64,000 bases of DNA from Xylanimonas ulmi. GTDB lineage: Bacteria > Actinomycetota > Actinomycetes > Actinomycetales > Cellulomonadaceae. The position numbers were made by a program, and so were the translations under genes. The notes beneath the pieces are model-generated. The model was given only the letters and a program-made list of their open reading frames with translations, did no database searches and was not told where the DNA came from. How positions within the stretch are numbered: position 1 is the stretch's first letter; each line of letters starts with the position of its first letter. The stretch spans positions 124,001-188,000 of the forward strand of contig NZ_SGWX01000001.1 of NCBI RefSeq assembly GCF_004216535.1, written 5' to 3'. Shown piece by piece: positions 11,318-52,724 of this stretch.

Positions 11318-11332
11318 CCGCCGCGCCCGCCC

Positions 11333-11494
11333 GGTGGTTGAGCCTGTCGAAACCACGCCGCCGCGCCCGCCCGGTGGTTGAGCCTGTCGAAACCACCCCA
11401 GTCATGACGCGTGGTTTCGACGGGCTCAACCAGCGGGGTGGGCGGTTTCGACGGGCTCAACCAGCGGGGTGGGCGGTTTCGACGGGCTCAACCG
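11333..11494. repeat. Cluster of five copies of a palindromic intergenic repeat
   Basis: Two copies read GGTTGAGCCTGTCGAAACC (within 11333-11356 and 11373-11396) and three the opposite way with one base change, GGTTTCGACGGGCTCAACC (11411-11432, 11442-11463, 11473-11494). Arms GTGGTT/AACCAC flank an 11-nt centre. The array lies between the convergent chdC and methyltransferase genes, and the last copy contains the methyltransferase stop codon (11488-11490). Confidence 0.9.
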
Positions 11495-12405
11495 GCGGGG
11501 GCGCGCGTCGCGACGACGACCATCGCGGCCGTCTCGTCGTCCTCATGGACCTGGGCGCGCAGCCCGGCCTGCGCCAACAGCGCCCGCGCCGCGGTGAGCT
11601 GCCGCCCGTCTCCGAGCTCGAACAGCAGGGCCCCGTCGTGTGCGAGCCACGTGGGCGCCGCGGCGATCACCCGTCGCAGCACCGCCAGGCCGTCGGCCCC
11701 GCCGTCGAGCGCGCGCACGGGCTCGTGCTCGCGCGCCTCGGGCGGCAGCAGCGCGATGGCGGCCGTCGGCACATAGGGGGCGTGGCACAGCAGCAGGTCG
11801 ACGCGCCCGCGCAGCGTGGGTGGCAGCGGCGCGTCCAGGTCGCCCGTGTGGACGGCGGCGCCGAGGTCCGCGAGGTTGCGCGCCGCGCACGCGCTCGCGG
11901 CCGGGTCGACGTCGGCCGCATGGAGAGTGACGGCGCGTCCGGCCTCGCGTAGCGCGATCGTCACCGCGCCGCCCAGCGCGCCGACGCCGCAGCACAGGTC
12001 GACCACGGTGACCGTCGCGTCGCCCGGTCCGCCATCGCCCGGTCCGCCATCGCCCGGTCCGCCATCGCCCCATCCGGGATCGACCCGTGCGTCGCCGCCG
12101 TCGTCGTGCCGCACCACCCGCACCGCCGCCTCGACCAACAACTCCGAGCGCTGCCGCGGCACGAACACCCCCGGCGCGACGGCCCAGCGCCGCCCGGCGA
12201 ACGCGACCCAGCCGAGCACGTGCTCCAGCGGCTCACCCGCCACGCGCCGCGCGACCAGGCGTTCGAGTCGGGCGTCCGCGTCGGGGCCTGCCGCCTCGCG
12301 CAACAGCGCGGCCTCCTCCTCGGCGAACACGCAGCCCGCCGCGCGCAGACGCGCCACGAGCGGGTCTGGCACGAGCGGGTCCGGCGAGGGCGGTGCGCTG
12401 GCCAC
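11488..12405 (-). CDS. PrmC/HemK-related methyltransferase with altered NPPY motif
   Basis: The 305-aa product has an N-terminal helical region (LERLVARRVAGEPLEHVLGW, as in PrmC) and a SAM-binding Rossmann domain (VTVVDLCCGVGALGGAV). It resembles the PrmC-related putative glutamine N5-methyltransferases of actinobacteria. Where PrmC has the catalytic NPPY and relatives have NAPY, this protein reads CHAPYVPT, so the asparagine that holds the target amide is replaced by histidine. Activity on release factors is therefore doubtful. A GDGGP-type repeat lies between the two domains. The stop codon comes from a palindromic repeat copy. ATG at 12405 begins close to the first conserved residues. Confidence 0.78.
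   Translation of the reverse strand: MASAPPSPDPLVPDPLVARLRAAGCVFAEEEAALLREAAGPDADARLERLVARRVAGEPLEHVLGWVAFAGRRWAVAPGVFVPRQRSELLVEAAVRVVRHDDGGDARVDPGWGDGGPGDGGPGDGGPGDATVTVVDLCCGVGALGGAVTIALREAGRAVTLHAADVDPAASACAARNLADLGAAVHTGDLDAPLPPTLRGRVDLLLCHAPYVPTAAIALLPPEAREHEPVRALDGGADGLAVLRRVIAAAPTWLAHDGALLFELGDGRQLTAARALLAQAGLRAQVHEDDETAAMVVVATRAPAG
12021..12080. repeat. 15-bp tandem repeat inside the PrmC-related gene
   Basis: CGCCCGGTCCGCCAT is repeated at 12021-12035, 12036-12050 and 12051-12065, with a degenerate fourth unit at 12066-12080. Read on the minus strand it encodes repeated MADRA or GDGGP-like pentapeptides in frame, so unit gain or loss would keep the reading frame. Confidence 0.85.
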
Positions 12406-13745: not shown

Positions 13746-14581
13746 TCAGTGCCCGAACGAGTCGGAGTCGGTCACGTGCGCCTCGCCGCGGTCCAGCGCG
13801 TCGATCGCCGCGACCTGCGCGGCGCTCAGCGTGAAGTCGAAGATGGCGAGGTTCTCGGCCTGCCGCCGCGGGTCGGCGGACTTGGGGATGGGCACGTAGC
13901 CGTGCTGGGTGTGCCAGCGCAGCACGACCTGGGCGGGCGTGACGCCGTGCTCGCGCGCCGCCGTCACGACCGCGGGCTCGGCCAGCATCGCGGCGGGCTT
14001 GATCGGGCTCCACGACTCGGTCACGGCGCCGTGCGCGGCGTTCGCGGCGACGCTCGCGGTGCGCAGCGCGTACGGGTTGAGGTTGATCTGGTTGACGTCG
14101 GGCGTCACGCCGGTCGCCGCCACGACGCGCTCCAGGTGTGCGGGCTTGAAGTTGGACATGCCGATCGCGCGCACCTTGCCCGCATCGAGCAGCGCGGCCA
14201 GCCCTCCCACGCCTGCGGGTAGGCGCCCTGGTCGGGGTTGGGCCAGTGGATGAGGAACAGGTCCAGGTAGTCGAGGCCCAGGCGGCGCACGCTGTTCTCC
14301 CATGCGGTGCGCACCCCCTCGACGGAGTGCCACTGGCGGTTGAGCTTGGTGGTCACGAAGACGTCCTCGCGCGGCACGCCCGCGTCACGCAGTCCCTGCC
14401 CGACGCCGGCCTCGTTGCGGTAGTTCTCGGCGGTGTCGACCAGGCGGTAACCGGCCTCGACGGCGGTGGCGACCGCGCGGGCCGCCTCGGCGTCGTCCAT
14501 GGGCCAGGTGCCCAGGCCGATCGCGGGCAGCGCCGCGCCGTGGGTGAGCGGGATCGTGGGGATGGTGGTGGGTGCGCTCAT
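13746..14581 (-). pseudogene. Aldo/keto reductase interrupted by a one-base frameshift
   Basis: The first part (from ATG 14581) reads normally through the AKR tetrad D49 (RLVDTAENYRNE), Y54, K79 (VTTKLN) and H112 (LFLIHWPNP) up to AYPQAWEG. The frame then shifts near 14202-14204, and the rest (LAALLDAGKVRAIGMSNF through IPKSADPRRQAENLAIFDF to the stop) continues in another frame. The span of 836 nt is one short of 279 codons, so a single lost G (a GGG run on the coding strand) explains it. Full length would be 278 aa, the family norm, a cytoplasmic NADPH-dependent carbonyl reductase of the AKR5-like type. It may be a true recent mutation or a sequencing error in a homopolymer. Confidence 0.85.
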
Positions 14582-14644: not shown

Positions 14645-15430
14645 TCAGCGCCGGCGCGCCCGACGCCGGAACGACGACGGCGTCTCGCCCGTCAGACGGG
14701 CGAACTGCCGCGAGAACGACGGCTGGTCGTAGAACCCCGCGGCGTGCGCGACCTGGGCGAGCGGAGTCGTCGTCTCCGCCAGCAACCGCGCGGCGCGGTC
14801 GGTGCGCGCGCGCAGCACGAGTTGGCGCGGGGAGATGCCGAACACCCGGCGCACCTGACGGTCGAGCGTGCGCGGCTCGCAGCCGGCCAACGCGGCGAGC
14901 GCCGCGAGGCTCAGCGGCGCCGACGGCGTCGCCTCCAGGTGCGCCGCCACGCCCGCGCTCAGCCGGGACATGGCGTCCATCGTGGCGTCGTCGGCGTCCC
15001 GCGAGCGCAGGTCCTGGGACACCGACACGAGCCCGACGACCTGGCCGTCGTCGCCGCGCACCGAGAGCTTGGAGGTCAGGAACCAGCCCGGCTGGCCACC
15101 CGGCCGGCGGATGAGCTCGAGCTCGCCGCGCAGCGGGCGGCCGGTGCGCAGCACCTCGCCGTCCTGCGCCTCGTAGCGCTCGGCGAGGTCGGGGACGAAC
15201 AGGTCGACGGCGCGGCGCCCGACGACGTCGCGCCGTGAGCGGGCGTGCGCGCGGCGCACGAACACCTCGTTGACCAGCACGTAGCGGCCCGAGGTGTCCT
15301 TGGCGCAGAACATGACCTCCGACAGGTCGTCCATGAGACCGACCATGGCGGGGGAGAGGGCGGTGAGCAGCGCGTCGCCCTCGGGCCACCCCACGGTGTC
15401 CCCGTCTGACTTGTCGGATTCGCGCGCCAT
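14645..15430 (-). CDS. PAS-domain AraC-family regulator, divergent from putA
   Basis: The 261-aa protein has a PAS domain at about 25-130 (LSEVMFCAKDTSGRYVLVNE, VSVSQDLRSRD) followed by an AraC-type double helix-turn-helix (LAALAALAGCEPRTLDRQVR and LAQVAHAAGFYDQPSFSRQF). A sensor domain of this kind may bind a small ligand, and the divergent placement 53 nt from putA suggests it controls proline catabolism. That role is inferred from context only. A GTG nine bases upstream (15439) is an alternative start; neither has a clear Shine-Dalgarno. A TACTGT hexamer lies in the intergenic space. Confidence 0.82.
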   Translation of the reverse strand: MARESDKSDGDTVGWPEGDALLTALSPAMVGLMDDLSEVMFCAKDTSGRYVLVNEVFVRRAHARSRRDVVGRRAVDLFVPDLAERYEAQDGEVLRTGRPLRGELELIRRPGGQPGWFLTSKLSVRGDDGQVVGLVSVSQDLRSRDADDATMDAMSRLSAGVAAHLEATPSAPLSLAALAALAGCEPRTLDRQVRRVFGISPRQLVLRARTDRAARLLAETTTPLAQVAHAAGFYDQPSFSRQFARLTGETPSSFRRRARRR

Positions 15431-15483
15431 GGAGCCCACAACAGTACAAGACGGCCGCCGCGCCGCGGGGGCACGCTGGGGGC

Positions 15484-18400
15484 ATGACCCATGCCACGGC
15501 CGCGCCCGGGTCCGCGGGCGCCCCTGACCAGCCGCCCACCTCTGGCCCGCCGCCCACCCCGATCTCCGGACTCGTCGAGCCCGCCGTCGCCCTCGCGGGG
15601 CGTTGGGCCGCGGCGTCGGGCGGCGGGACGGGGCGCGCGGACCGCCGCGCCCACGCCGAAGCCGAGCGCCTCGCCCGCCTCGTGTCCGACCCCGCCGGGC
15701 TCGACCTCGCCGTGGGGTTCGTCGACGACGTCGCCCGCCCGCAGGACGTGCGGGTGGCCGCCAAGGCGCTCGCCCGCCTCGGGGATCGCGCCGGGGAGGC
15801 GAGCTTCCTGGGCGGCGCCGACCGCCTGCTGCTGCGCGTGGGCGCGCGCCTGGCGACCACGCTGCCCGGCGTCGTCGTGCCCGCCGCGCGCATGCGGCTG
15901 CGCCAGCTCGTCGGCCATCTCGTGGCCGACGCCGGGCCGGGCCTGAGCCGGCGCCTGGCGCGCACCCGCGCCGACGGGTTCGCGCTCAACGTCAACCTGC
16001 TCGGCGAGGCCGTGCTCGGCGAGGACGAGGCGCGTGCGCGCCTGGCCCGCACCATCGCGCTCGCCGAGCGCCCCGACGTCGACTACGTGTCGGTCAAGGT
16101 GTCGTCGGTCGCCGCGCAGCTCGTGACGTGGGACCTGGAGGGCTCGCGCGCCCGCGTCGTCGAGCGGCTGCTGCCGCTGTACCGCGCGGCGCGCGACCAC
16201 GGCGTGTTCCTCAACCTCGACATGGAGGAGTACCGCGACCTCGCGCTGACCACGGCGGTGTTCCAGGACGTCCTGGGCCGGGAGGAGTTCCGCTCGCTCG
16301 AGGCCGGCATCGTGTTGCAGGCGTACCTGCCCGACGCGCTCGGCGCGCTCGACGAGCTCACCGCGTTCGCGCGCGCACGCCTCGCCGCGGGTGGGGCGCG
16401 CGTCAAGGTGCGGCTGGTCAAGGGCGCCAACCTCGCCATGGAGCAGGTCGAGGCCGAGGCGCACGACTGGCCGCAGGCGCCCTACCCGTCCAAGGCCGAG
16501 GTCGACGCCAACTACGTGCGCGTGCTCGACACGGCGCTGACGGCCGAGCGCACCGCCGCCGTGCGCCTGGGCGTCGCGTCCCACAACCTGTTCGACCTGG
16601 CGCTGGCCGTGCTCACCGCGCGCGCCCGCGGCGTCACCGAGGGGCTCGACCTCGAGATGCTGCAGGGCATGGCGCCGGGCGAGTCGCGTGCCGTGCGCGA
16701 GGAGGTCGCGCGCGACGGCGGACGCGTCGTGCTCTACACGCCCGTGGTGCGCGCGCAGGACTTCGACGTCGCCATTAGCTACCTGGTGCGGCGCCTGGAG
16801 GAGAACGCCGCGCCGCAGAACTTCCTGCACGCCGCCGCGGCGCCCGGGCGCGAGGCGATGGTCGCCCAGGAGGCCGCCTTCCGTGCCTCGGTCGCCGCCG
16901 CGGTCCCGTACGCGCCCGACGACGTCGCCCCGCGCCGCACCCCCCGCCAACCCGCCTCGGTGGTTGAGCCTGTCGAAACCACCTCACCATCCATGCCCGG
17001 GGTCTCGACAGGCTCGACCGCCCAGGTTGGCTCGACCGCCCAGGTTGGTTCGACCGCCCAGGTTGGCTCGACCGCCCAGGTTGGCTCGACCGCCGAGGTC
17101 CGCTCGACCGGCGCGCCCACCGCCGCCGGGTTCCACAACGCCGCCGACACCGACCCCGCCGTCGCCGCGCACCGCGCGTGGGCCGCGCGGATCGTCTCGC
17201 GCACGCAGTCGGGATACCGCCCCCTGCAGACCGCCCCGGTCGCGACGACCGCCGCGGTCGACGACGCCGTCGCCCGCGCGTCCCAGGCGCAGCGCGCATG
17301 GGCCGCCGTGCCCACCGCCGCCCGCGCGGCGGCGCTGCGCGCGATCGGCGACCGCCTGGAGGGGCGCCGCGCCGACCTGGTCGCGGCGATGGTCCACGAG
17401 GCGGGCAAGACCGTCGCCGAGGCGGACCCCGAGGTCAGCGAGGCCGTCGACTTCGCGCGCTACTACGCGGGCTCGGCTCAGGCGCTCGACGCCGTCCCGG
17501 GCGCCCGGTTCACGCCCGAGGGCGTCACGCTCGTGACCCCGCCGTGGAACTTCCCGGTGGCGATCCCCGTGGGCGGTGTGCTCGCGGCGCTCGCGGCCGG
17601 ATCGAGCGTGCTGGCCAAGCCGGCCTCGCCTACGCCGCGCTGCTTCGAGGTCGCGGTCGAGGCGATCGGCGCGGGACTGGCCGACGCGGCCGCCGCGACC
17701 GGCCTCACCGACGCCCAGTGCGCGGGCGTGCTCCAGTTCCTGCCCGTGCGCGACCGCGCCGTCGCCCGCCACCTGGTGACGCATGACGGCGTGGCGCGCG
17801 CGATCCTCACGGGCTCGATCGAGACGGCGGAGCTGTTCGCGGGCTGGCGCCCGCAGCGGCCGGTGCTGGCGGAGACGAGCGGCAAGAACGCGATCGTCGT
17901 GACGCCGTCGGCGGACCTCGACCTGGCCGTGGCCGACCTGGTGCGCAGCGCGTTCGGCCACGCAGGGCAGAAGTGCTCGGCGGCCTCGCTCGCGATCCTG
18001 GTCGGCTCGGTGGGCGATCCGACGACGGCGACGGGCGAGCGGTTCCGCCGCCAGCTCGTCGACGCGGTGCGCTCGCTGCGGGTCGGGCCAGCGACGGACC
18101 TGGCGACGGTGATGGGGCCGCTCACCGAGCCTGCGGCGGGCAAGTTGGAGCGCGCGCTGACCACACTGGAGCCCGGCGAGTCGTGGCTGGTGCGTCCCGA
18201 GCGGCTCGACGAGACCGCCGACGCCGCCGGCCTTGACCCGCGTCGGCTGTGGACGCCCGGATTGCGCGACGGGGTCGCGCGCGGCTCGTTCTTCCACCTG
18301 ACCGAGGTCTTCGGCCCGGTGCTCGGCCTCATGACCGCCGCCGACCTCGACGAGGCGATCGCGCTGCAGAACGGCGTCGCGTTCGGCCTCACCGCAGGCC

Positions 18401-19113
18401 TGCACTCGCTCGACGACGACGAGGTCGCCACGTGGTGCGACCGGGTCGAGGCGGGCAACCTCTACGTCAACCGCCACATCACGGGCGCCATCGTGCGCCG
18501 CCAGCCGTTCGGCGGGTGGAAGGCGTCGAGCGTCGGCCCCGGAGCCAAGGCGGGCGGTCCGCACTACGTGGCGCAGCTCGGCGCCTGGTCCGACGGTGAG
18601 GGCGTGCCGTCGCGCGCGTCCGACCCCGGCGCTTGGCTCGCGTGGGCGCAGGCCGACGACGCGCGCGCCTGGCCGCTGCTCGTCGCGGGCCAGGACCCGT
18701 CCCGGCTGCGCGCCGAGGAGAACACCTTCCGGCTGCGACCGGTCGACGAGGTCACGGTGCGCGTCGGCGAGGGGGCGCTGCCCGTCGAGGTCGCCCGGGT
18801 GGTCGCGGCCGCCGGGCGCGCGGGGGTGCGCGCCGTCGTCGTGCCCGCCGCCGATCAGGGGTGGGGTGTGCCGCACGAGGCGCCGATGGGTGACGCCGAC
18901 TTCGCCGCCGCGGTCGCGTCCGGGCAGGTCAGCGGCCGAATCCGGGTCATCGGCGGTGCGCCCGGGCTGCGTGCGGCGGCCGCCGCGCACCCCGGCTCGA
19001 CGACGGTGCTGGACGCGCCCGTGGTCGCCTCGGGTGAGCGCGAGCTGCTGGTGTTCCTGCGCGAGCAGGCGGTCAGCCGCACGCGCCACCGCTACGGACA
19101 TGTGCGCCACTGA
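15484..19113 (+). CDS. putA: Bifunctional proline dehydrogenase / glutamate-semialdehyde dehydrogenase
   Basis: The 1209-aa enzyme oxidises proline to glutamate in two steps. The FAD-dependent PRODH barrel spans about 100-470 (FALNVNLLGEAVLG, VRLVKGANLAMEQVE, NLFDLALAVL). The aldehyde dehydrogenase spans about 560-1050, with general base E797 in LAETSGKNAIVV and nucleophile C831 in GHAGQKCSAAS, 34 residues apart as in the ALDH family. There is no N-terminal ribbon-helix-helix, so it is not an autoregulator of the E. coli kind. The interdomain linker (about 492-542) consists of a translated palindromic repeat (VVEPVETT) and repeated STAQVG hexapeptides. The gene starts 53 nt from a divergent PAS-AraC regulator. 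Confidence 0.95.
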   Translation: MTHATAAPGSAGAPDQPPTSGPPPTPISGLVEPAVALAGRWAAASGGGTGRADRRAHAEAERLARLVSDPAGLDLAVGFVDDVARPQDVRVAAKALARLGDRAGEASFLGGADRLLLRVGARLATTLPGVVVPAARMRLRQLVGHLVADAGPGLSRRLARTRADGFALNVNLLGEAVLGEDEARARLARTIALAERPDVDYVSVKVSSVAAQLVTWDLEGSRARVVERLLPLYRAARDHGVFLNLDMEEYRDLALTTAVFQDVLGREEFRSLEAGIVLQAYLPDALGALDELTAFARARLAAGGARVKVRLVKGANLAMEQVEAEAHDWPQAPYPSKAEVDANYVRVLDTALTAERTAAVRLGVASHNLFDLALAVLTARARGVTEGLDLEMLQGMAPGESRAVREEVARDGGRVVLYTPVVRAQDFDVAISYLVRRLEENAAPQNFLHAAAAPGREAMVAQEAAFRASVAAAVPYAPDDVAPRRTPRQPASVVEPVETTSPSMPGVSTGSTAQVGSTAQVGSTAQVGSTAQVGSTAEVRSTGAPTAAGFHNAADTDPAVAAHRAWAARIVSRTQSGYRPLQTAPVATTAAVDDAVARASQAQRAWAAVPTAARAAALRAIGDRLEGRRADLVAAMVHEAGKTVAEADPEVSEAVDFARYYAGSAQALDAVPGARFTPEGVTLVTPPWNFPVAIPVGGVLAALAAGSSVLAKPASPTPRCFEVAVEAIGAGLADAAAATGLTDAQCAGVLQFLPVRDRAVARHLVTHDGVARAILTGSIETAELFAGWRPQRPVLAETSGKNAIVVTPSADLDLAVADLVRSAFGHAGQKCSAASLAILVGSVGDPTTATGERFRRQLVDAVRSLRVGPATDLATVMGPLTEPAAGKLERALTTLEPGESWLVRPERLDETADAAGLDPRRLWTPGLRDGVARGSFFHLTEVFGPVLGLMTAADLDEAIALQNGVAFGLTAGLHSLDDDEVATWCDRVEAGNLYVNRHITGAIVRRQPFGGWKASSVGPGAKAGGPHYVAQLGAWSDGEGVPSRASDPGAWLAWAQADDARAWPLLVAGQDPSRLRAEENTFRLRPVDEVTVRVGEGALPVEVARVVAAAGRAGVRAVVVPAADQGWGVPHEAPMGDADFAAAVASGQVSGRIRVIGGAPGLRAAAAAHPGSTTVLDAPVVASGERELLVFLREQAVSRTRHRYGHVRH
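16959..17109 (+). repeat. Palindromic repeat plus five 18-bp tandem units inside putA
   Basis: A full copy of the genomic repeat (16959-16983, encoding VVEPVETT) is followed by a related half copy, GGTCTCGACAGGCTCGACC (17001-17019). Then come five 18-bp units: GCCCAGGTTGGCTCGACC at 17020, 17038 (one change), 17056 and 17074, and a diverged unit at 17092-17109. All stay in the putA frame. Confidence 0.92.
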
Positions 19114-19119
19114 GCGAGA

Positions 19120-19133
19120 TGACAACGTTTGCA
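19120..19133. promoter_or_regulatory. LacI-family operator-like site before the GPH symporter
   Basis: TGACAACGTTTGCA matches the symmetric LacI/CytR-type sequence TGCAAACGTTTGCA at 12 of 14 positions. It lies 102 nt before the symporter start and just after the putA stop, so the symporter is probably controlled by a sugar-responsive repressor different from CebR. Confidence 0.5.
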
Positions 19134-19234
19134 GGATTCTCTGCTACCGTCGCGTGGCGCGGGTGACGTGGGTCACTAGCGCGGTTCGGCCAAGGAGGCC
19201 CGGACCGGGATCCGAGCGATGAGGCGAGGCTGAC

Positions 19235-20791
19235 GTGGCGACGAGCGACACGACGAGAGCGCGGGTGTACACGGCACGGCCCATCACGTTGGCCCGCAGC
19301 GTGGGGTTCGGCGTGCTGGACTTCATGGGCGGCGGTTGGAACACCATCGTCGGCGGCCTGATGCTGTACTTCTTCACCACCTACGGCGGTGTGAGCGTCG
19401 GGCAGAGCGCCACCATCTTGTTCGTCGCCCGCATCGTCGACGCGCTGGCGTCGCTGCTCATCGGCCCGGCGACCGACAACTTCTACCGCACGCGCCTCGG
19501 CCGGCGGTTCGGCCGCCGCCACTTCTTCCTGCTGGTCGGCGTCCCGGCGCTGCTCGTGGTCTTCCCGCTGCTGTGGGTCTCGGGCGGAGGATTCTGGTAC
19601 TACCTCGTGGTGTACCTGGCCGTCGAGGTGGTCATGGCGTTCATCCTCATCCCGTGGGAGACGCTGCCCACGGAGATGACCGACGACTACGCCCAGCGCA
19701 CCAAGCTGAGCTCGACGCGCATGTTCCTGTCGGCGCTCGGCACGTTCGTCGTGTTCTTCGTGCCCGCGATGGTCAAGGAGACCGGCAACCCGCACGCGTT
19801 CACCATCACGGGCGCGATCTTCGCCGTGCTGTTCGGCGCGGCCGTGGCCACGACCTACCTGACGACGTGGGAGCGCGAGCTGACGCCCGAGCTGATCGCC
19901 GAGCTCGACGCCCGCCCACGCCTGACGGCGCGCGAGGCTGTGGTCTCCACGGCCAAGGACTTCGCCTCCACGTTCCGCAACGCCAGCTTCCGCAAGCACC
20001 TGACGATCTACCTGTTCTCGTTCACGGGCAAGGACGTCTACGCCTCGGCGCTGACCTTCTTCACCGTGTACGCGGTGACCATCGCCGACGGCGAGCAGAT
20101 CGGCTTCGTCCTGCAGACCCTGTCGATCGTGGGCCTGCCCGTGACCGTCGCCGCCGGGTTCCTCATGGTCAAGAGGGGGCCGCGGTTCCTGTGGGCGACG
20201 TCGTACACGCTCATCCTCCTGGCGCTCGTGGCGACCGGGGCGATCTACGCGCTGCGGCCGGGCGCCGTCGTCGCGCTGCTCGTCGTCGTCAACGTCGTCT
20301 ACCAGGCCGGGCGGGCGCTGCTGGAGTTCACGCCGTGGAACGTGTTCCCGTTCATCCCCGACGTCGACCGCATCATGACGGGCAAGGACCGCGCCGGGAT
20401 CTACGCCGCGGTCATGACATTCGGCCGCAAGTCGACCGGCGCGCTGGCCACGCTGCTGGTGGGCTGGCTGCTGGAGGTCGGCGGGTTCGTCTCGCCGGGC
20501 GCCGACGGCGCCCCCGTGGCGCAGACCCCGCAGGCGCTGCACACCGTCGCACTGGTCACCGTGCTGGCCCCGGCGGCGCTCATTCTCGTCGCCTTCGTGA
20601 CCTCACGCCTGTTCCGGCTCGACGCGACCACGCACGCCGTGCTGCGCGCCGAGATCGACCGCCTCGCCGCCGGGGGCGCGAAGGCCGACGCGACGCCCCG
20701 GGCGCGCGCCGTGGCCGAGCAGCTCACCGGCCGCCCCTATGACGAGTTGTGGCCGGTGCCGCCGGTCGCGGAGGCCAGGGCGCTCGTGTGA
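19235..20791 (+). CDS. GPH-family (glycoside-pentoside-hexuronide) MFS symporter
   Basis: The 518-aa protein has about twelve hydrophobic helices, beginning SVGFGVLDFMGGGWNTIVGG, with the GPATDNFYRTRLGRRFGRRH loop (D-x5-TRxGRxR-type motif of this family) and IPWETLPTEMTDDYAQRTKL after helix 4. GPH carriers import sugars or glycosides with H+ or Na+. A 12/14 LacI-type operator upstream supports sugar control. No glycosidase is adjacent, so the sugar is unknown. GTG at 19235 was used because it precedes the first helix and a GAGGCGAGG stretch lies upstream. Confidence 0.85.
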   Translation: MATSDTTRARVYTARPITLARSVGFGVLDFMGGGWNTIVGGLMLYFFTTYGGVSVGQSATILFVARIVDALASLLIGPATDNFYRTRLGRRFGRRHFFLLVGVPALLVVFPLLWVSGGGFWYYLVVYLAVEVVMAFILIPWETLPTEMTDDYAQRTKLSSTRMFLSALGTFVVFFVPAMVKETGNPHAFTITGAIFAVLFGAAVATTYLTTWERELTPELIAELDARPRLTAREAVVSTAKDFASTFRNASFRKHLTIYLFSFTGKDVYASALTFFTVYAVTIADGEQIGFVLQTLSIVGLPVTVAAGFLMVKRGPRFLWATSYTLILLALVATGAIYALRPGAVVALLVVVNVVYQAGRALLEFTPWNVFPFIPDVDRIMTGKDRAGIYAAVMTFGRKSTGALATLLVGWLLEVGGFVSPGADGAPVAQTPQALHTVALVTVLAPAALILVAFVTSRLFRLDATTHAVLRAEIDRLAAGGAKADATPRARAVAEQLTGRPYDELWPVPPVAEARALV

Positions 20792-44812: not shown

Positions 44813-46093
44813 ATGGCCTCTCACGCGGCCTGGTCCGAGCACGCGGTGCTCTGGCACGTCTACCCGCTCGGCTTCTGCGGGGCGCCGATCCGCCCCGAGC
44901 GCCCCGAGCCCGCCCCCGTCCACCGCCTGCGCCGCCTGACCGCCTGGCTCGACCACGCCGTCGCGCTGGGCGCCTCGGCGCTGCTGCTCGGACCGGTGCA
45001 CGCCTCGGCGACCCACGGCTACGACACCCTCGACCACCTGCGGCTCGACCCGCGGCTGGGGACCGAGGAGGACTTCGACGCCCTCGTGGCCGCGTGCCAC
45101 CAGCGCGGCCTGCGCGTGGTGCTCGACGCCGTCCTGAGCCACGTCGGGCGGGAGCACCCCGCGCTCGTGCGCGCGCTGCGCGAGGGGCCCGGCAGCCCGG
45201 ACGCCGCGCTCTTTGACATCGACTGGGACGCGCCCGGCGGGCCTGCACCGCGCGTCTTCGAGGGGCACGGCTCCCTCGCGCGCCTCGACCACTCCGGCCA
45301 GGCCGCGCGTGAGCACGCCGTGCGGGTGCTGACGCACTGGCTCGACCGCGGCGTCGACGGCTGGCGCCTGGACGCCGCCTACTCGGTGCCCACCGACTTC
45401 TGGGCCGACGTCGTCGCGGCCGTGCGCCGTACGCACCCCGACGCGTGGCTCCTCGGCGAGGTCATCCACGGCGACTACGCGGGCTTCGTGCGCGCCAGCG
45501 GCGTCGACACCGTCACGCAGTACGAGCTGTGGAAGGCCGTGTGGTCCTCGCTGCGCGACCGCAACCTGTACGAGCTCGACTGGACCCTGCGCCGGCACTG
45601 CGCGCTGCTGGAGGAGTTCGTGCCGCAGACGTTCGTGGGCAACCACGACGTGACCCGCATCGCGTCGCTCGCCGGGCGCGACGGCGCTCTCGTGGCGCTC
45701 GCGGTGCTCATGACGGTCGGCGGCGTCCCGTCGGTCTACGCCGGCGACGAGCACGGCTTCACCGGGGTCAAGGAGGAGCGGCTCGGGGGAGACGACGCCG
45801 TGCGGCCCGCGTTCCCCGACACCCCGGGCGAGCTGGCGCCCTGGGGGATGGACGTGCTGCGCGCCCATCAGGACCTCATCGGGCTGCGCAGGCGCCACCC
45901 CTGGCTGACGACCGCGCGCACCGAGGCCGTCGAGCTGAGCAACACGCGGTTCGTCTACCGGACGGTCGCGGCCGACGGCGGCGCGTCGCTGCGCGTCGAG
46001 CTCGACGTCGCCGACACGCCGCGCGCGGTGGTCCGCGCCGCCGACGGCGCACAACTGTGGCCCCTGCCCACCGCCCCCACCGCTGGTGGTTGA
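44813..46093 (+). CDS. GH13 (alpha-amylase family) glycosidase
   Basis: The 426-aa enzyme has the GH13 catalytic triad: nucleophile D187 in GWRLDAAY, acid/base E216 in LLGEVIHG and D279 in FVGNHDVTRI. Region I reads DAVLSHVG where most members have DAVxNH. It has no signal peptide, so it acts inside the cell, and it is shorter than typical amylases with a small C-terminal sheet domain. It could be a maltose- or trehalose-related hydrolase or transglycosidase; the exact reaction is not clear. AAGGAGCTGGC precedes the ATG. A TetR dyad overlaps its promoter. The stop codon (46091-46093) is provided by a palindromic repeat copy. Confidence 0.88.
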   Translation: MASHAAWSEHAVLWHVYPLGFCGAPIRPERPEPAPVHRLRRLTAWLDHAVALGASALLLGPVHASATHGYDTLDHLRLDPRLGTEEDFDALVAACHQRGLRVVLDAVLSHVGREHPALVRALREGPGSPDAALFDIDWDAPGGPAPRVFEGHGSLARLDHSGQAAREHAVRVLTHWLDRGVDGWRLDAAYSVPTDFWADVVAAVRRTHPDAWLLGEVIHGDYAGFVRASGVDTVTQYELWKAVWSSLRDRNLYELDWTLRRHCALLEEFVPQTFVGNHDVTRIASLAGRDGALVALAVLMTVGGVPSVYAGDEHGFTGVKEERLGGDDAVRPAFPDTPGELAPWGMDVLRAHQDLIGLRRRHPWLTTARTEAVELSNTRFVYRTVAADGGASLRVELDVADTPRAVVRAADGAQLWPLPTAPTAGG

Positions 46094-46204
46094 GCCCGTC
46101 GAAACCACCCCACCACCCCACCGCTGGTTGAGCCTGTCGAAACCACGCGACCCGAACGTGGTGGTGGTTTCGACAGGCTCAACCACCGGGTGGGGCTCAA
46201 CCAC
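46085..46204. repeat. Cluster of palindromic repeats between the GH13 and response-regulator genes
   Basis: Full copies lie at 46085-46109 and 46124-46146 in one orientation and at 46163-46187 in the other, followed by a half copy (46193-46204). They separate two convergent genes. The first contains the GH13 stop codon. Confidence 0.9.
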
Positions 46205-46213
46205 CGGGTGGGC

Positions 46214-46966
46214 TCAGGCGCCGGGGCGGACCAGGCCGGTCTCGTAGGCCACCACCACCGCCTGCACGCGGTCGCGCGCGCCGAGCTTGGCCAGCACCCG
46301 CCCCACGTGCGTCTTGACGGTCGCCTCGGCCACGAACAGGTCCGAGGCGATCTCGGTGTTGGACCGCCCGCGCGCCATGAGCACCAGCACCTCGCGCTCG
46401 CGGTCGGTGAGCGTGGCGAGGGCCTCGTGCTCGGGCGTCGAGGCATCGGCGGTCGGCTCGGGCAGCGCCGTGACGAGGTGTTCGAGCAGTCGACGTGTCG
46501 AGGACGGCGCGATGACCGCGTCACCGTGGTGCACGGTGCGGATCGCCGTCAGCATCTCCTCGGGCGGCGCGTCCTTGAGCAGGAACCCCGACGCCCCGGC
46601 CCGGATGGCCTCGAGCACGTACTCGTCGAGGTCGAACGTGGTCAGCACGACGACGCGCGGCGCGTCGGGCGCCTGCGTCAGCCGCGCGGTCGCCGTCAGC
46701 CCGTCCATGCGCGGCATGCGCACGTCCATGAGCACGACGTCGGCGGGCACAGGCAGCACGCCCAGCACTCGCAGCGCCTCGACGCCGTCGCCCGCCTCGG
46801 CGACCACGGTGAGGTCAGGCTGGGAGTCGATGACCATGCGGAAGCCCGCGCGCACGAGCTGCTGGTCGTCGATCAAGGCCACCCGGATCGGCCCGCCGTC
46901 GCCGTCCCCGGAGTGCTCGCGGACGCCGATGTCGGCTCCCCGCGCGTCGTGCGCGCTCGTGCTCAT
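46214..46966 (-). CDS. NarL/FixJ-family response regulator
   Basis: The 250-aa regulator has a receiver domain with phosphorylation site D81 (DVVLMDVRMPRMDGL), T in VVVLTTFD and K in GFLLKDAPPEEML, then a LuxR-type helix-turn-helix (LTDREREVLVLMARGRSNTE, EATVKTHVGRVLAKLGARDR). About 25 extra residues precede the receiver. Its ATG overlaps the stop of the kinase gene upstream (ATGA), so the two form a pair. Targets and signal are unknown. Palindromic repeats follow its stop. Confidence 0.92.
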   Translation of the reverse strand: MSTSAHDARGADIGVREHSGDGDGGPIRVALIDDQQLVRAGFRMVIDSQPDLTVVAEAGDGVEALRVLGVLPVPADVVLMDVRMPRMDGLTATARLTQAPDAPRVVVLTTFDLDEYVLEAIRAGASGFLLKDAPPEEMLTAIRTVHHGDAVIAPSSTRRLLEHLVTALPEPTADASTPEHEALATLTDREREVLVLMARGRSNTEIASDLFVAEATVKTHVGRVLAKLGARDRVQAVVVAYETGLVRPGA

Positions 46967-50715: not shown

Positions 50716-51915
50716 GTGACAGCACCTGTGATCGCCGTGGTCGGCGGAGGACAGCTCGCCCGCATGATGGCCCCGGCGGCCGGAGAGCTCGGCGTCCACC
50801 TGCGTGTTCTGGTCGAGGAGCCCGGCAGCTCGGCGGCCCAGGTCCTCGCCGACGCCCCCGTGGGCGCCGCATCCGACGAGGCCGCGATCCGCGCGCTCAT
50901 CGCGCCCGGTGGCGACGACGCCGCGCCCGCCGCCGTCCTGACCTTCGAGCACGAGCACGTGCCCAACGCCCTGCTGCGGGACCTGCTCGAGCACGGCACC
51001 CCCGTGCGGCCCGGCCCCGACGCGCTGGTGCACGCGCAGGACAAGATCGTCATGCGCACGCGCCTGACGCAGCTCGGCCTGCCGTGCCCGCGCTGGGCGC
51101 CGCTGCCGCTCGACCCGGACGCCGCGCGCGCCGCGCTGGGGGAGTTCCTCGCGGGCGCCCCGGACGGCGAGGCCGTGGTCAAGACCTCGCGCGGCGGGTA
51201 TGACGGCAAGGGCGTGCGCGTGGTGTCGGCCGCGAGCGACGTCGACGACTGGATCGCCGCCGCGGCGGCCGGCGCCCCGCAACTTCTGGTCGAGGAGAAG
51301 GTGCCGTTCACGCGTGAGCTCGCGGCGCTGGTGGCCCGGCGCCCCAGCGGCGAGGTGCGCACCTGGCCCGTCGTCGAGTCGATCCAGCGCGACGGCGTCT
51401 GCTCCGAGGTCATCGCGCCCGCGCCGGGCATCTCGGCCGAACTGGAGGCGCGCGCCGAGCAGATCGCGCGCGACGTCGCCACGGGCGTCGGGGTGACCGG
51501 GGTGCTGGCCGTCGAGCTGTTCGAGTACCCGGACCCCGTCACTGGCGAGCCGAACGTCGCCGTCAACGAGCTGGCCATGCGCCCGCACAACAGCGGGCAC
51601 TGGACCATCGACGGGGCGGTGACCAGCCAGTTCGAGCAGCACCTGCGCGCGGTGCTCGACCTGCCGCTGGGCGCGACCGAGGCGACCGCGCCGTGGACCG
51701 TGATGGCCAACGTGCTGGGCTCGTCGCTGACCGAGCTGACCGACGCGCTGCCGCAGGTCATGGCCCGGTTCCCCGAGGCGCGCGTCAACCTGTACGGCAA
51801 GGGCATCCGCGCCGGGCGCAAGCTCGGCCACGTCAACGTGAGCGGCGCCGACCTCGCGCAGGTGCGCAGCCGCGCCGTCGAGGCCGCCGCCCTCCTGCGC
51901 GGCGAAACCCTCTAG
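50716..51915 (+). CDS. purK: N5-carboxyaminoimidazole ribonucleotide synthase
   Basis: The 399-aa ATP-grasp enzyme makes N5-CAIR from AIR, bicarbonate and ATP in purine synthesis. It begins with the PurK Rossmann-like [20 protein letters not shown] and has the ATP-grasp segments [31 protein letters not shown] and the metal site [17 protein letters not shown]. Length is normal. GTG starts the conserved region and may be leaderless. purE follows after about 140 nt filled with palindromic repeats, so the two may be on one mRNA. Confidence 0.95.
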
Positions 51916-51930
51916 CCCCGACCCCGCCCC

Positions 51931-52037
51931 GGTGGTTGAGCCTGTCGAAACCACCCGCCCCACCCCGCCCCGGTGGTTGAGCCTGTCGAAACCACCCGCC
52001 CCGTACCCTCAAGGTGGTTTCGACAAGCTCAACCACC
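51931..52037. repeat. Three palindromic repeats between purK and purE
   Basis: Copies at 51931-51955 and 51972-51996 share one orientation; 52013-52037 (GGTGGTTTCGACAAGCTCAACCACC) is inverted and can pair with either, forming a large hairpin between the two purine genes. Confidence 0.9.
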
Positions 52038-52057
52038 GCGCCCCCGAAGGAGCCCCC

Positions 52058-52573
52058 ATGACCACCCACCCCGTCGTCGGCATCGTCATGGGGTCGGACT
52101 CCGACTGGCCGACCATGGAGGCCGCCGCCACGGCGCTCGACGAGTTCGGCGTGCCGTATGAGGCCGACGTCGTCTCCGCCCACCGCATGCCCGTCGAGAT
52201 GGTCGAGTACGGCCGCTCGGCCTCGTCGCGCGGTCTGCGCGTGATCATCGCCGGCGCGGGCGGCGCCGCGCACCTGCCGGGCATGCTCGCCGCGGTGACG
52301 CCGCTGCCCGTCATCGGTGTGCCGGTGCCGCTGCGCTATCTGGACGGCATGGACTCGCTGCTGTCGATCGTGCAGATGCCCGCAGGAGTTCCGGTCGCGA
52401 CGGTCTCGATCGGCGGGGCGCGCAACGCGGGGCTGCTGGCGGCGCGCATCCTCGGCGCCGGGACGAGCGAGCAGGACGCGGCGCTGCGGGCGCGCATGGA
52501 GGAGTTCCAGGCCGAGCTGGGCGAGGTCGCGCACGCCAAGGGCGCGGCGCTGCGCGAGCGCCTCCGCGGCTGA
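52058..52573 (+). CDS. purE: N5-carboxyaminoimidazole ribonucleotide mutase
   Basis: The 171-aa enzyme moves the carboxyl group of N5-CAIR to give CAIR, the step after PurK. It has the PurE signature [20 protein letters not shown], the catalytic histidine in [14 protein letters not shown] and [20 protein letters not shown] is upstream of the ATG; earlier in-frame codons are translated repeat sequence and are not part of the gene. It is convergent with the LCP gene, and another repeat array follows its stop. Confidence 0.95.
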
Positions 52574-52589: not shown

Positions 52590-52724
52590 GGTGGTTGAGC
52601 CTGTCGAAACCACCCCAGCTGCCGGGTCTCGACAAGCTCGACCGCCGGGTTGGCTCGACCGCCGGGTTGGCTCGACCGCCGAGTGGGCTCGACCGCTGGG
52701 TTGGCTCGACCGCCGGGTCCAACC
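52590..52724. repeat. Palindromic repeat plus four 17-bp tandem units after purE
   Basis: A full copy (52590-52614) is followed by the half-type copy GGTCTCGACAAGCTCGACC (52625-52643) and units GCCGGGTTGGCTCGACC at 52644 and 52661, GCCGAGTGGGCTCGACC at 52678 and GCTGGGTTGGCTCGACC at 52695, then a partial unit. This is the same composite as inside putA, but with 17-bp, not 18-bp, units. Confidence 0.92.

What the first reader, a model, noticed from the sequence alone, without database searches (positions are those of the whole stretch)
16959..17109. Genomic palindromic repeat and five 18-bp units translated inside PutA
The linker between the two catalytic domains of PutA contains a full copy of the intergenic repeat (read as VVEPVETT) plus repeated STAQVG hexapeptides. 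An apparently non-coding repeat has entered a 3.6-kb essential-looking enzyme gene in frame and been kept, in a place where extra residues are harmless.
Basis: seen in the sequence. Interest (0 to 1): 0.75.

Follow-up and report, generated by a model that had tools for sequence, protein, structure and literature searches.

The report
Mobile DNA repeat translated inside PutA
A short repeat scattered through this actinobacterium's genome sits inside the gene of a proline-degrading enzyme, where it should be translated as a floppy linker, and it sits the same way, nearly always in one reading frame, in other genes of this genome and a relative, some of them DNA-repair genes.

Summary
PutA (15484-19113, 1209 aa) carries, between its catalytic domains, two inverted copies of a genome-wide REP-like hairpin (16959-16983 minus, exact; 17001-17019 plus, 2 mismatches) and an array of 18-bp half-element units (17011-17110). 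The genome holds 283 copies (up to 3 mismatches; reversed control 0). All 5 other genus members with a complete PutA linker lack it; two Promicromonospora PutAs carry it elsewhere in the same linker, so it probably entered twice. AlphaFold2 leaves residues 492-548 disordered. In 864 kb of this genome and 800 kb of a relative, 20 of 80 and 56 of 112 copies lie in called genes; of 38 with good coding signal on both sides, 36 read as VVEPVETT or VVSTGSTT. Host genes include DnaE2, TruB, MutM, ExoIII and HrpA. Best reading: a REPIN-like selfish element without RAYT, filtered by selection for places and a frame where its peptide is tolerated. Rickettsia palindromic elements and intragenic REPs of other bacteria are known precedents; new here, as far as searched, are the family and its actinobacterial home, without tag or Y1 transposase. 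Expression, neutrality and copy-number change are untested.

The parts
15484..19113 (+). putA, bifunctional proline dehydrogenase / glutamate-semialdehyde dehydrogenase, 1209 aa
   Evidence: ORF; both Pfam domains; closest solved chain 5ux5 PutA, E 3.4e-288. NCBIfam's PutA model matches below its cut-off (353 of 747 bits)
16959..16983 (-). REP-like element, exact consensus, read in the gene as VVEPVETT (residues 493-500)
17001..17019 (+). second, inverted REP-like element, 2 mismatches (together T-A to C-G in the stem), read as VSTGST
16955..17026 (.). pair of inverted elements: 26-nt arms, 85% complementary, 20 nt between; folds as one long hairpin, z -4.85 as DNA
17011..17110 (+). half-element array, 18-bp unit GGCTCGACCGCCCAGGTT x 5.6, read as GSTAQV repeats; overlaps the end of the second element
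16957..17127 (+). codons of PutA residues 492-548, the only long segment with pLDDT below 50
   Evidence: model numbering 466-522, plus 26
52590..52718 (.). intergenic twin: minus element, plus element, then array of 17-bp units (GCTCGACCGCCGGGTTG x 4.9)
11318..11500 (.). cluster of 5 elements between convergent genes (touches the end of one)
46067..46216 (.). cluster of 3 elements between convergent genes (touches the end of one)
51915..52034 (.). cluster of 3 elements downstream of the gene 50728-51915; the gene call 51977-52573 overlaps it at its doubtful start

Best explanation
A REPIN-like unit (two inverted REP-like hairpins about 40 bp apart, with a half-element array on its right) inserted into the linker between the two catalytic domains of PutA, in a frame where both hairpins read as polar, disorder-prone peptide ([14 protein letters not shown]) and where the array's 18-bp unit keeps the frame. 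The protein tolerates it because the linker is variable and unstructured. Shown: the insert, its absence in the genus relatives compared, its shared sequence with intergenic copies, the frame bias and the predicted disorder. Inferred: movement as a unit, removal by selection of insertions in other frames or places, and near-neutrality. The mobilising enzyme is unknown; no Y1-type REP transposase was found in this genome.
For: Copies: 283 in the genome, control 0. No element in the linker of 5 of 5 complete genus relatives; 3 of 87 PutA rows carry it: own, P. soli L091, P. iranensis L116. The two Promicromonospora inserts sit nearer the PRODH side, and those genomes are rich in the element (177 and 144 hits to a degenerate pattern with up to 1 mismatch). 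Long disorder only at 492-548. Frame: 36 of 38 well-supported in-gene copies are in the VVEPVETT / VVSTGSTT frames; 15 of 15 well-supported genes with the VEPVET orientation use that frame rather than the other open one. Element-like arrays have periods divisible by 3 in 15 of 15 cases inside called genes and 9 of 28 outside (4 at gene edges set aside). Alignments with relatives lacking the insert for TruB and MutM. Opposed neighbours are minus-plus 36 times, plus-minus 3 times. Lower GC3 of the insert, 0.78 against 0.86 for the rest of putA.
Against: No transposition intermediate or strain-level presence/absence was seen; one genome per species was available, and target duplications were not systematically sought. 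The tests on period and spacing are partly circular, because a gene call needs an open frame. Gene calls are home-made. Linkers about as long exist without the element (L078 121 aa, L079 124 aa, G002 110 aa, own 121), so length alone proves nothing. 8 of 76 in-gene copies read as GFDRLN and 1 in a further frame; 5 of those 8 are within 30 residues of a called gene end, 2 are in the middle of a NUDIX gene. Same-direction neighbours are commoner (61) than minus-plus pairs (36), so pairs are not the only unit. A Promicromonospora genome with 216 hits (L094) has none in PutA.
Confidence: 0.85

Rival explanations
1. The linker peptide is a selected coding repeat (a Pro/Glu/Thr or Ser/Thr linker) that arose by slippage inside putA, and the resemblance to intergenic DNA is coincidence or flowed from gene to intergenic space.
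For: The 18-bp array is typical of slippage; PVEP/PVET runs also occur with 2 mismatches in TruB and DnaE2, as if diverging under protein selection.
Against: An exact and a near-exact 19-bp copy of a 283-copy repeat, in the same inverted arrangement as intergenic pairs; intergenic twin with the same order of parts.
Confidence: 0.05
2. The insert is kept for a use: the mRNA hairpin at the domain border slows ribosomes so that PRODH folds before GSALDH, or the longer linker tunes the enzyme.
For: RNA of 16950-17115 folds at -88.5 kcal/mol, z -4.74; element in the same linker in two Promicromonospora.
Against: 84 of 87 PutA rows (one of them cut in the linker, one without it) lack the element; copies without an inverted partner occur in TruB and DnaE2; linker length varies from 61 to 124 aa.
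Confidence: 0.1
3. Assembly or annotation artefact.
For: No reads were available.
Against: Single-contig genome; the insert is about 150 bp; both domains are in one frame.
Confidence: 0.02

Closest known systems
Rickettsia palindromic elements (RPE; Ogata et al. 2000, not read; via passages of PMC10969869 and PMC3767692)
   Same: palindromic repeats inserted in frame in unrelated genes; [quoted passage not shown] PMC3767692 places inserts in solvent-exposed areas and shows DNA polymerase III alpha as one host gene
   Different: RPEs are given as 100-150 bp in several families; here a 19-29 bp hairpin, often in pairs, in a high-GC actinobacterium; no sequence comparison with RPEs was made
Intragenic GTAG- and CGTC-tagged REPs (Di Nocera et al. 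2013, PMC3733652; section 15, part 1 of section 17, and passages read)
   Same: short hairpins, head-to-head dimers, mostly downstream of genes; found inside genes, notably DnaE2, RecBCD/Uvr proteins and pseudouridine synthases; flexible linkers or loops suggested as tolerant sites
   Different: no GTAG or CGTC end tag in our consensus; the word part 'actino' is absent from that main text (supplements and figures not seen); single-frame use not stated in the parts read
REPINs with RAYT (PMC3116915; search listing and start of abstract only)
   Same: inverted REP doublets as a mobile unit (recalled)
   Different: no Y1 transposase found in this genome or the 11 genus genomes, 1 in 121 family genomes

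Membership tests
REP (repetitive extragenic palindrome) | 20-40 bp imperfect hairpin in high copy | tested here: met
   283 copies; stem pair 4/16 is C-G instead of T-A in 16 of 80 and 9 of 112 copies, unpaired in 2 of 80 and 8 of 112
REP (repetitive extragenic palindrome) | mostly outside genes, between convergent or same-direction genes | tested here: met
   60 of 80 copies outside genes or at edges in this genome, none between divergent genes; only 56 of 112 outside in G002
GTAG/CGTC-tagged REP super-families | GTAG or CGTC tetranucleotide at one end | tested here: not met
   majority bases over 80 and 112 copies give GGTGGTTTCGACAGGCTCAACCACCGGGG, no such tag
REPIN/RAYT system | inverted doublets as a usual unit | tested here: inconclusive
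   neighbours within 80 bp: minus-plus 36, plus-minus 3, same direction 61; 18 of 40 clusters in the G000 sample are single copies
REPIN/RAYT system | RAYT (Y1_Tnp) gene in the genome | tested here: not met
   0 in G000; 1 of 121 in the family, in a genome without copies at up to 2 mismatches
Rickettsia palindromic element-like behaviour | in-frame residence in unrelated genes with a conserved encoded peptide | tested here: met
   13 called genes in 864 kb and 23 in 800 kb, 5 and 11 of them well supported; 36 of 38 well-supported copies in two frames
Rickettsia palindromic element-like behaviour | insert expressed in the protein | not testable with these tools
   needs proteomics

The most novel reading that the evidence does not exclude
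The element has become a coding-compatible mobile module: it persists because its sequence reads as harmless linker peptide, and it recurrently fills the same loops (PutA linker, MutM loop) and the same gene classes (DnaE2, TruB, helicases and nucleases of repair) as unrelated REPs in other phyla, which would mean shared targeting or selection on those genes rather than chance tolerance.
Probability: 0.2. Interest if true: 0.85.

Novelty: new variant of a known kind. Interest (0 to 1): 0.6.

Why it matters
[quoted passage not shown] Among the six genus genomes that are 99% or more complete, copy number ranges from 5 to 600, so the same genes can be compared with and without inserts; this makes the neutrality, the frame filter and any gene-class bias of such inserts directly testable.

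Tried and rejected
RAYT as mobiliser: no Y1_Tnp gene in this genome or genus. Rfam at gathering threshold: no match in 15000-19500. Plasmid search with the pair: 5 records, weak (best E 0.1), no source found. Literature: no held paper contains VEPVET or any of four core strings. The word searches (9 of 9 papers listed; 12 of 42 listed) showed no title or abstract on an actinobacterial REP of this kind; (10 of 1,823 listed) gave nothing beyond PMC3733652. Enrichment for DNA-repair genes was not tested: the called genes as a whole could not be annotated. One search (gene calls without masking) gave 57 intergenic, 19 inside, 4 edge; the masked version (56, 20, 4) is the one used. One search stopped with a script error and was repeated. 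The place list is truncated, so no strand distribution was read from it.

Full report
What is there. PutA (15484-19113, + strand) is one frame of 1209 codons with proline dehydrogenase at 156-449 and aldehyde dehydrogenase at 580-1029; the closest solved chain is a PutA, 5ux5 (E 3.4e-288), while NCBIfam's PutA model matches below its cut-off (353 of 747 bits). Between the domains lie an exact REP-like core on the minus strand (16962-16980; 25-bp form 16959-16983), an inverted copy with 2 mismatches (17001-17019), and an array of 18-bp units (17011-17110). The pair has 26-nt arms, 85% complementary, and folds as one hairpin (z -4.85 as DNA; RNA of 16950-17115 z -4.74). The array's unit starts with the last nine bases of the second element.

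The element. The genome (3,965,098 bp, one contig) has 149 + 134 matches with up to 3 mismatches and none to the reversed pattern. Majority bases over 80 copies of this genome and 112 of relative G002 give GGTGGTTTCGACAGGCTCAACCACCGGGG; stem pair 4/16 is T-A in 62 and 87 copies, C-G in 16 and 9, unpaired in 2 and 8, and T-G in 8 of G002. Neighbouring copies within 80 bp are minus-plus 36 times (29 of them 35-45 bp apart), plus-minus 3 times and same-direction 61 times. Clusters outside genes favour convergent gene pairs and avoid divergent ones: 18 convergent, 10 same-direction, 0 divergent of 29 (1 at a stretch end) in this genome; 11, 12 and 1 of 25 (1 at an end) in G002.

Distribution. With up to 2 mismatches the 11 genus genomes hold 253 (own), 600, 187, 99, 75, 45, 5, 5, 2, 1 and 0 copies (five of them incomplete, 65-93%); 26 of 121 family genomes have a match, and 35 of 396 phylum genomes, 32 of these with one or two. 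The Y1 transposase family of RAYTs is in 1 of 121 family genomes, G081, which has no copies, and in none of the 11 genus genomes.

When did it enter PutA? In the two Promicromonospora it lies nearer the PRODH domain, which suggests a separate entry (inference). With a degenerate pattern and up to 1 mismatch their genomes hold 177 and 144 copies, three other Promicromonospora 41, 216 and 51 without the element in PutA, and four genomes of other genera 0, 1, 0 and 0. Linker lengths run from 61 to 124 aa among complete rows, so this is a permissive place. AF2 of residues 27-1209 (mean pLDDT 88, 38 sequences) leaves 492-548 below 50, matching the element-coded 493-543; the only other such run is 4 residues.

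PutA is not alone. In 864 kb of this genome (window plus 40 spaced stretches) a coding model that ignores the element's own bases puts 20 of 80 copies in genes, 4 at edges and 56 outside; in 800 kb of G002, 56 of 112 in genes and 56 outside; these are 13 and 23 genes, 5 and 11 of them with good coding signal on both sides of a copy. Over all 76 in-gene copies the frames are VEPVET 50, VSTGST 17, GFDRLN 8, other 1; with more than 25 bits on both sides, 26, 10, 2 and 0. One of three frames in the VEPVET orientation has a stop; the other open frame (LSLSK) was not seen in any of the 76, and 15 of 15 well-supported genes with that orientation use VEPVET. Periods of arrays containing GGCTCRACC are divisible by 3 in 15 of 15 in-gene and 9 of 28 intergenic arrays (4 at edges set aside); spacings of neighbouring copies in 33 of 38 and 19 of 62. 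These two tests are partly circular, since a gene call needs an open frame; the choice between open frames is not.

Which genes. Of the 35 element-bearing genes other than putA, 24 proteins were scanned with Pfam and 9 of these, plus PutA, with NCBIfam. Above an NCBIfam cut-off: error-prone DNA polymerase DnaE2, TruB, HrpA, MutM/Fpg, exonuclease III, a DECH helicase, and a succinate dehydrogenase/fumarate reductase flavoprotein. Below cut-offs: a rhamnulokinase-like kinase and a PDDEXK nuclease with UvrD_C. Pfam alone: an M18 peptidase, a NUDIX enzyme, a radical SAM protein, ABC transporters and others; one 764-aa protein matched no Pfam family. MutM of G002 is not in the well-supported set by bits, but has Pfam matches on both sides of the insert. 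In TruB, this genome has two copies (2 mismatches each) in a loop that 8 of 14 compared genomes lack or nearly lack; 5 others have element-free inserts there apart from one 4-mismatch match in G056. The AF2 model gives pLDDT of 54-71 over this loop, but another stretch (91-110) is as low, so this is weak support. In MutM, G002 has a pair and this genome an array plus one exact copy at the same loop; the other 7 of 9 genomes have no copy within 4 mismatches, two of them (G003, G007) with a very short loop, while G004 shows a VAAPVETT stretch that looks like a decayed copy (inference).

Mechanism. The simplest reading is that pairs of elements move or are copied as units, with array growth at their edge; most insertions into genes are lost, and those seen are the ones in a permissive loop or linker and in the frame whose peptide is polar and disorder-prone. 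The intergenic twin at 52590-52718 shows the same order (minus element, plus element, array) with 17-bp units against 18 in PutA, so the array is part of the element's habit rather than special to PutA. Units of 18 bp also occur outside genes (4 of 28 intergenic arrays), so PutA may have received a fitting unit rather than adjusted it. What moves the element is not known.

Known ground. Rickettsia palindromic elements are the classic case; the passages read say that they sit in frame in unrelated genes, that each encodes a conserved peptide and that the inserts are solvent-exposed (PMC10969869, PMC3767692). Di Nocera et al. (PMC3733652; section 15, part 1 of section 17 and passages) describe REPs inside genes, stress DnaE2, RecBCD/Uvr proteins and pseudouridine synthases, and suggest flexible linkers. 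The phenomenon is therefore known, one-peptide use included. The family, its actinobacterial home and its lack of tag and RAYT were not found in the searches made, which cover open-access text only. DnaE2 and TruB as hosts again, in an unrelated family and phylum, is the most provocative point, but enrichment was not tested.

Noticed in passing
window 13746-14581, minus strand: An aldo/keto reductase-like gene (name from reading the translation) whose two halves lie in different frames, as if frameshifted.
   Followed up: partly
window 52590-52718: Intergenic cluster with the same order of parts as the PutA insert but 17-bp array units.
   Followed up: yes
L287 (G004 mutM), protein residues about 70-80: VAAPVETT stretch in a genome with only 5 copies: possible decayed element in the MutM loop where two other species have clear copies.
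   Followed up: partly
L191 (G081): The only Y1 transposase found in 121 family genomes lies in a genome without a copy of the element (up to 2 mismatches).
   Followed up: no
G003 PutA (L063/L092): A different, Ser-rich insert (SSVSSSSVSSSVGAGSPGGWGRPRPLTPWRHD) a little upstream in the same linker; no element match within 3 mismatches.
   Followed up: no
L241:9159-10334 (G002): NUDIX protein with two copies read in the rarer frame ([10 protein letters not shown]), the one exception among the 16 well-supported genes.
   Followed up: no
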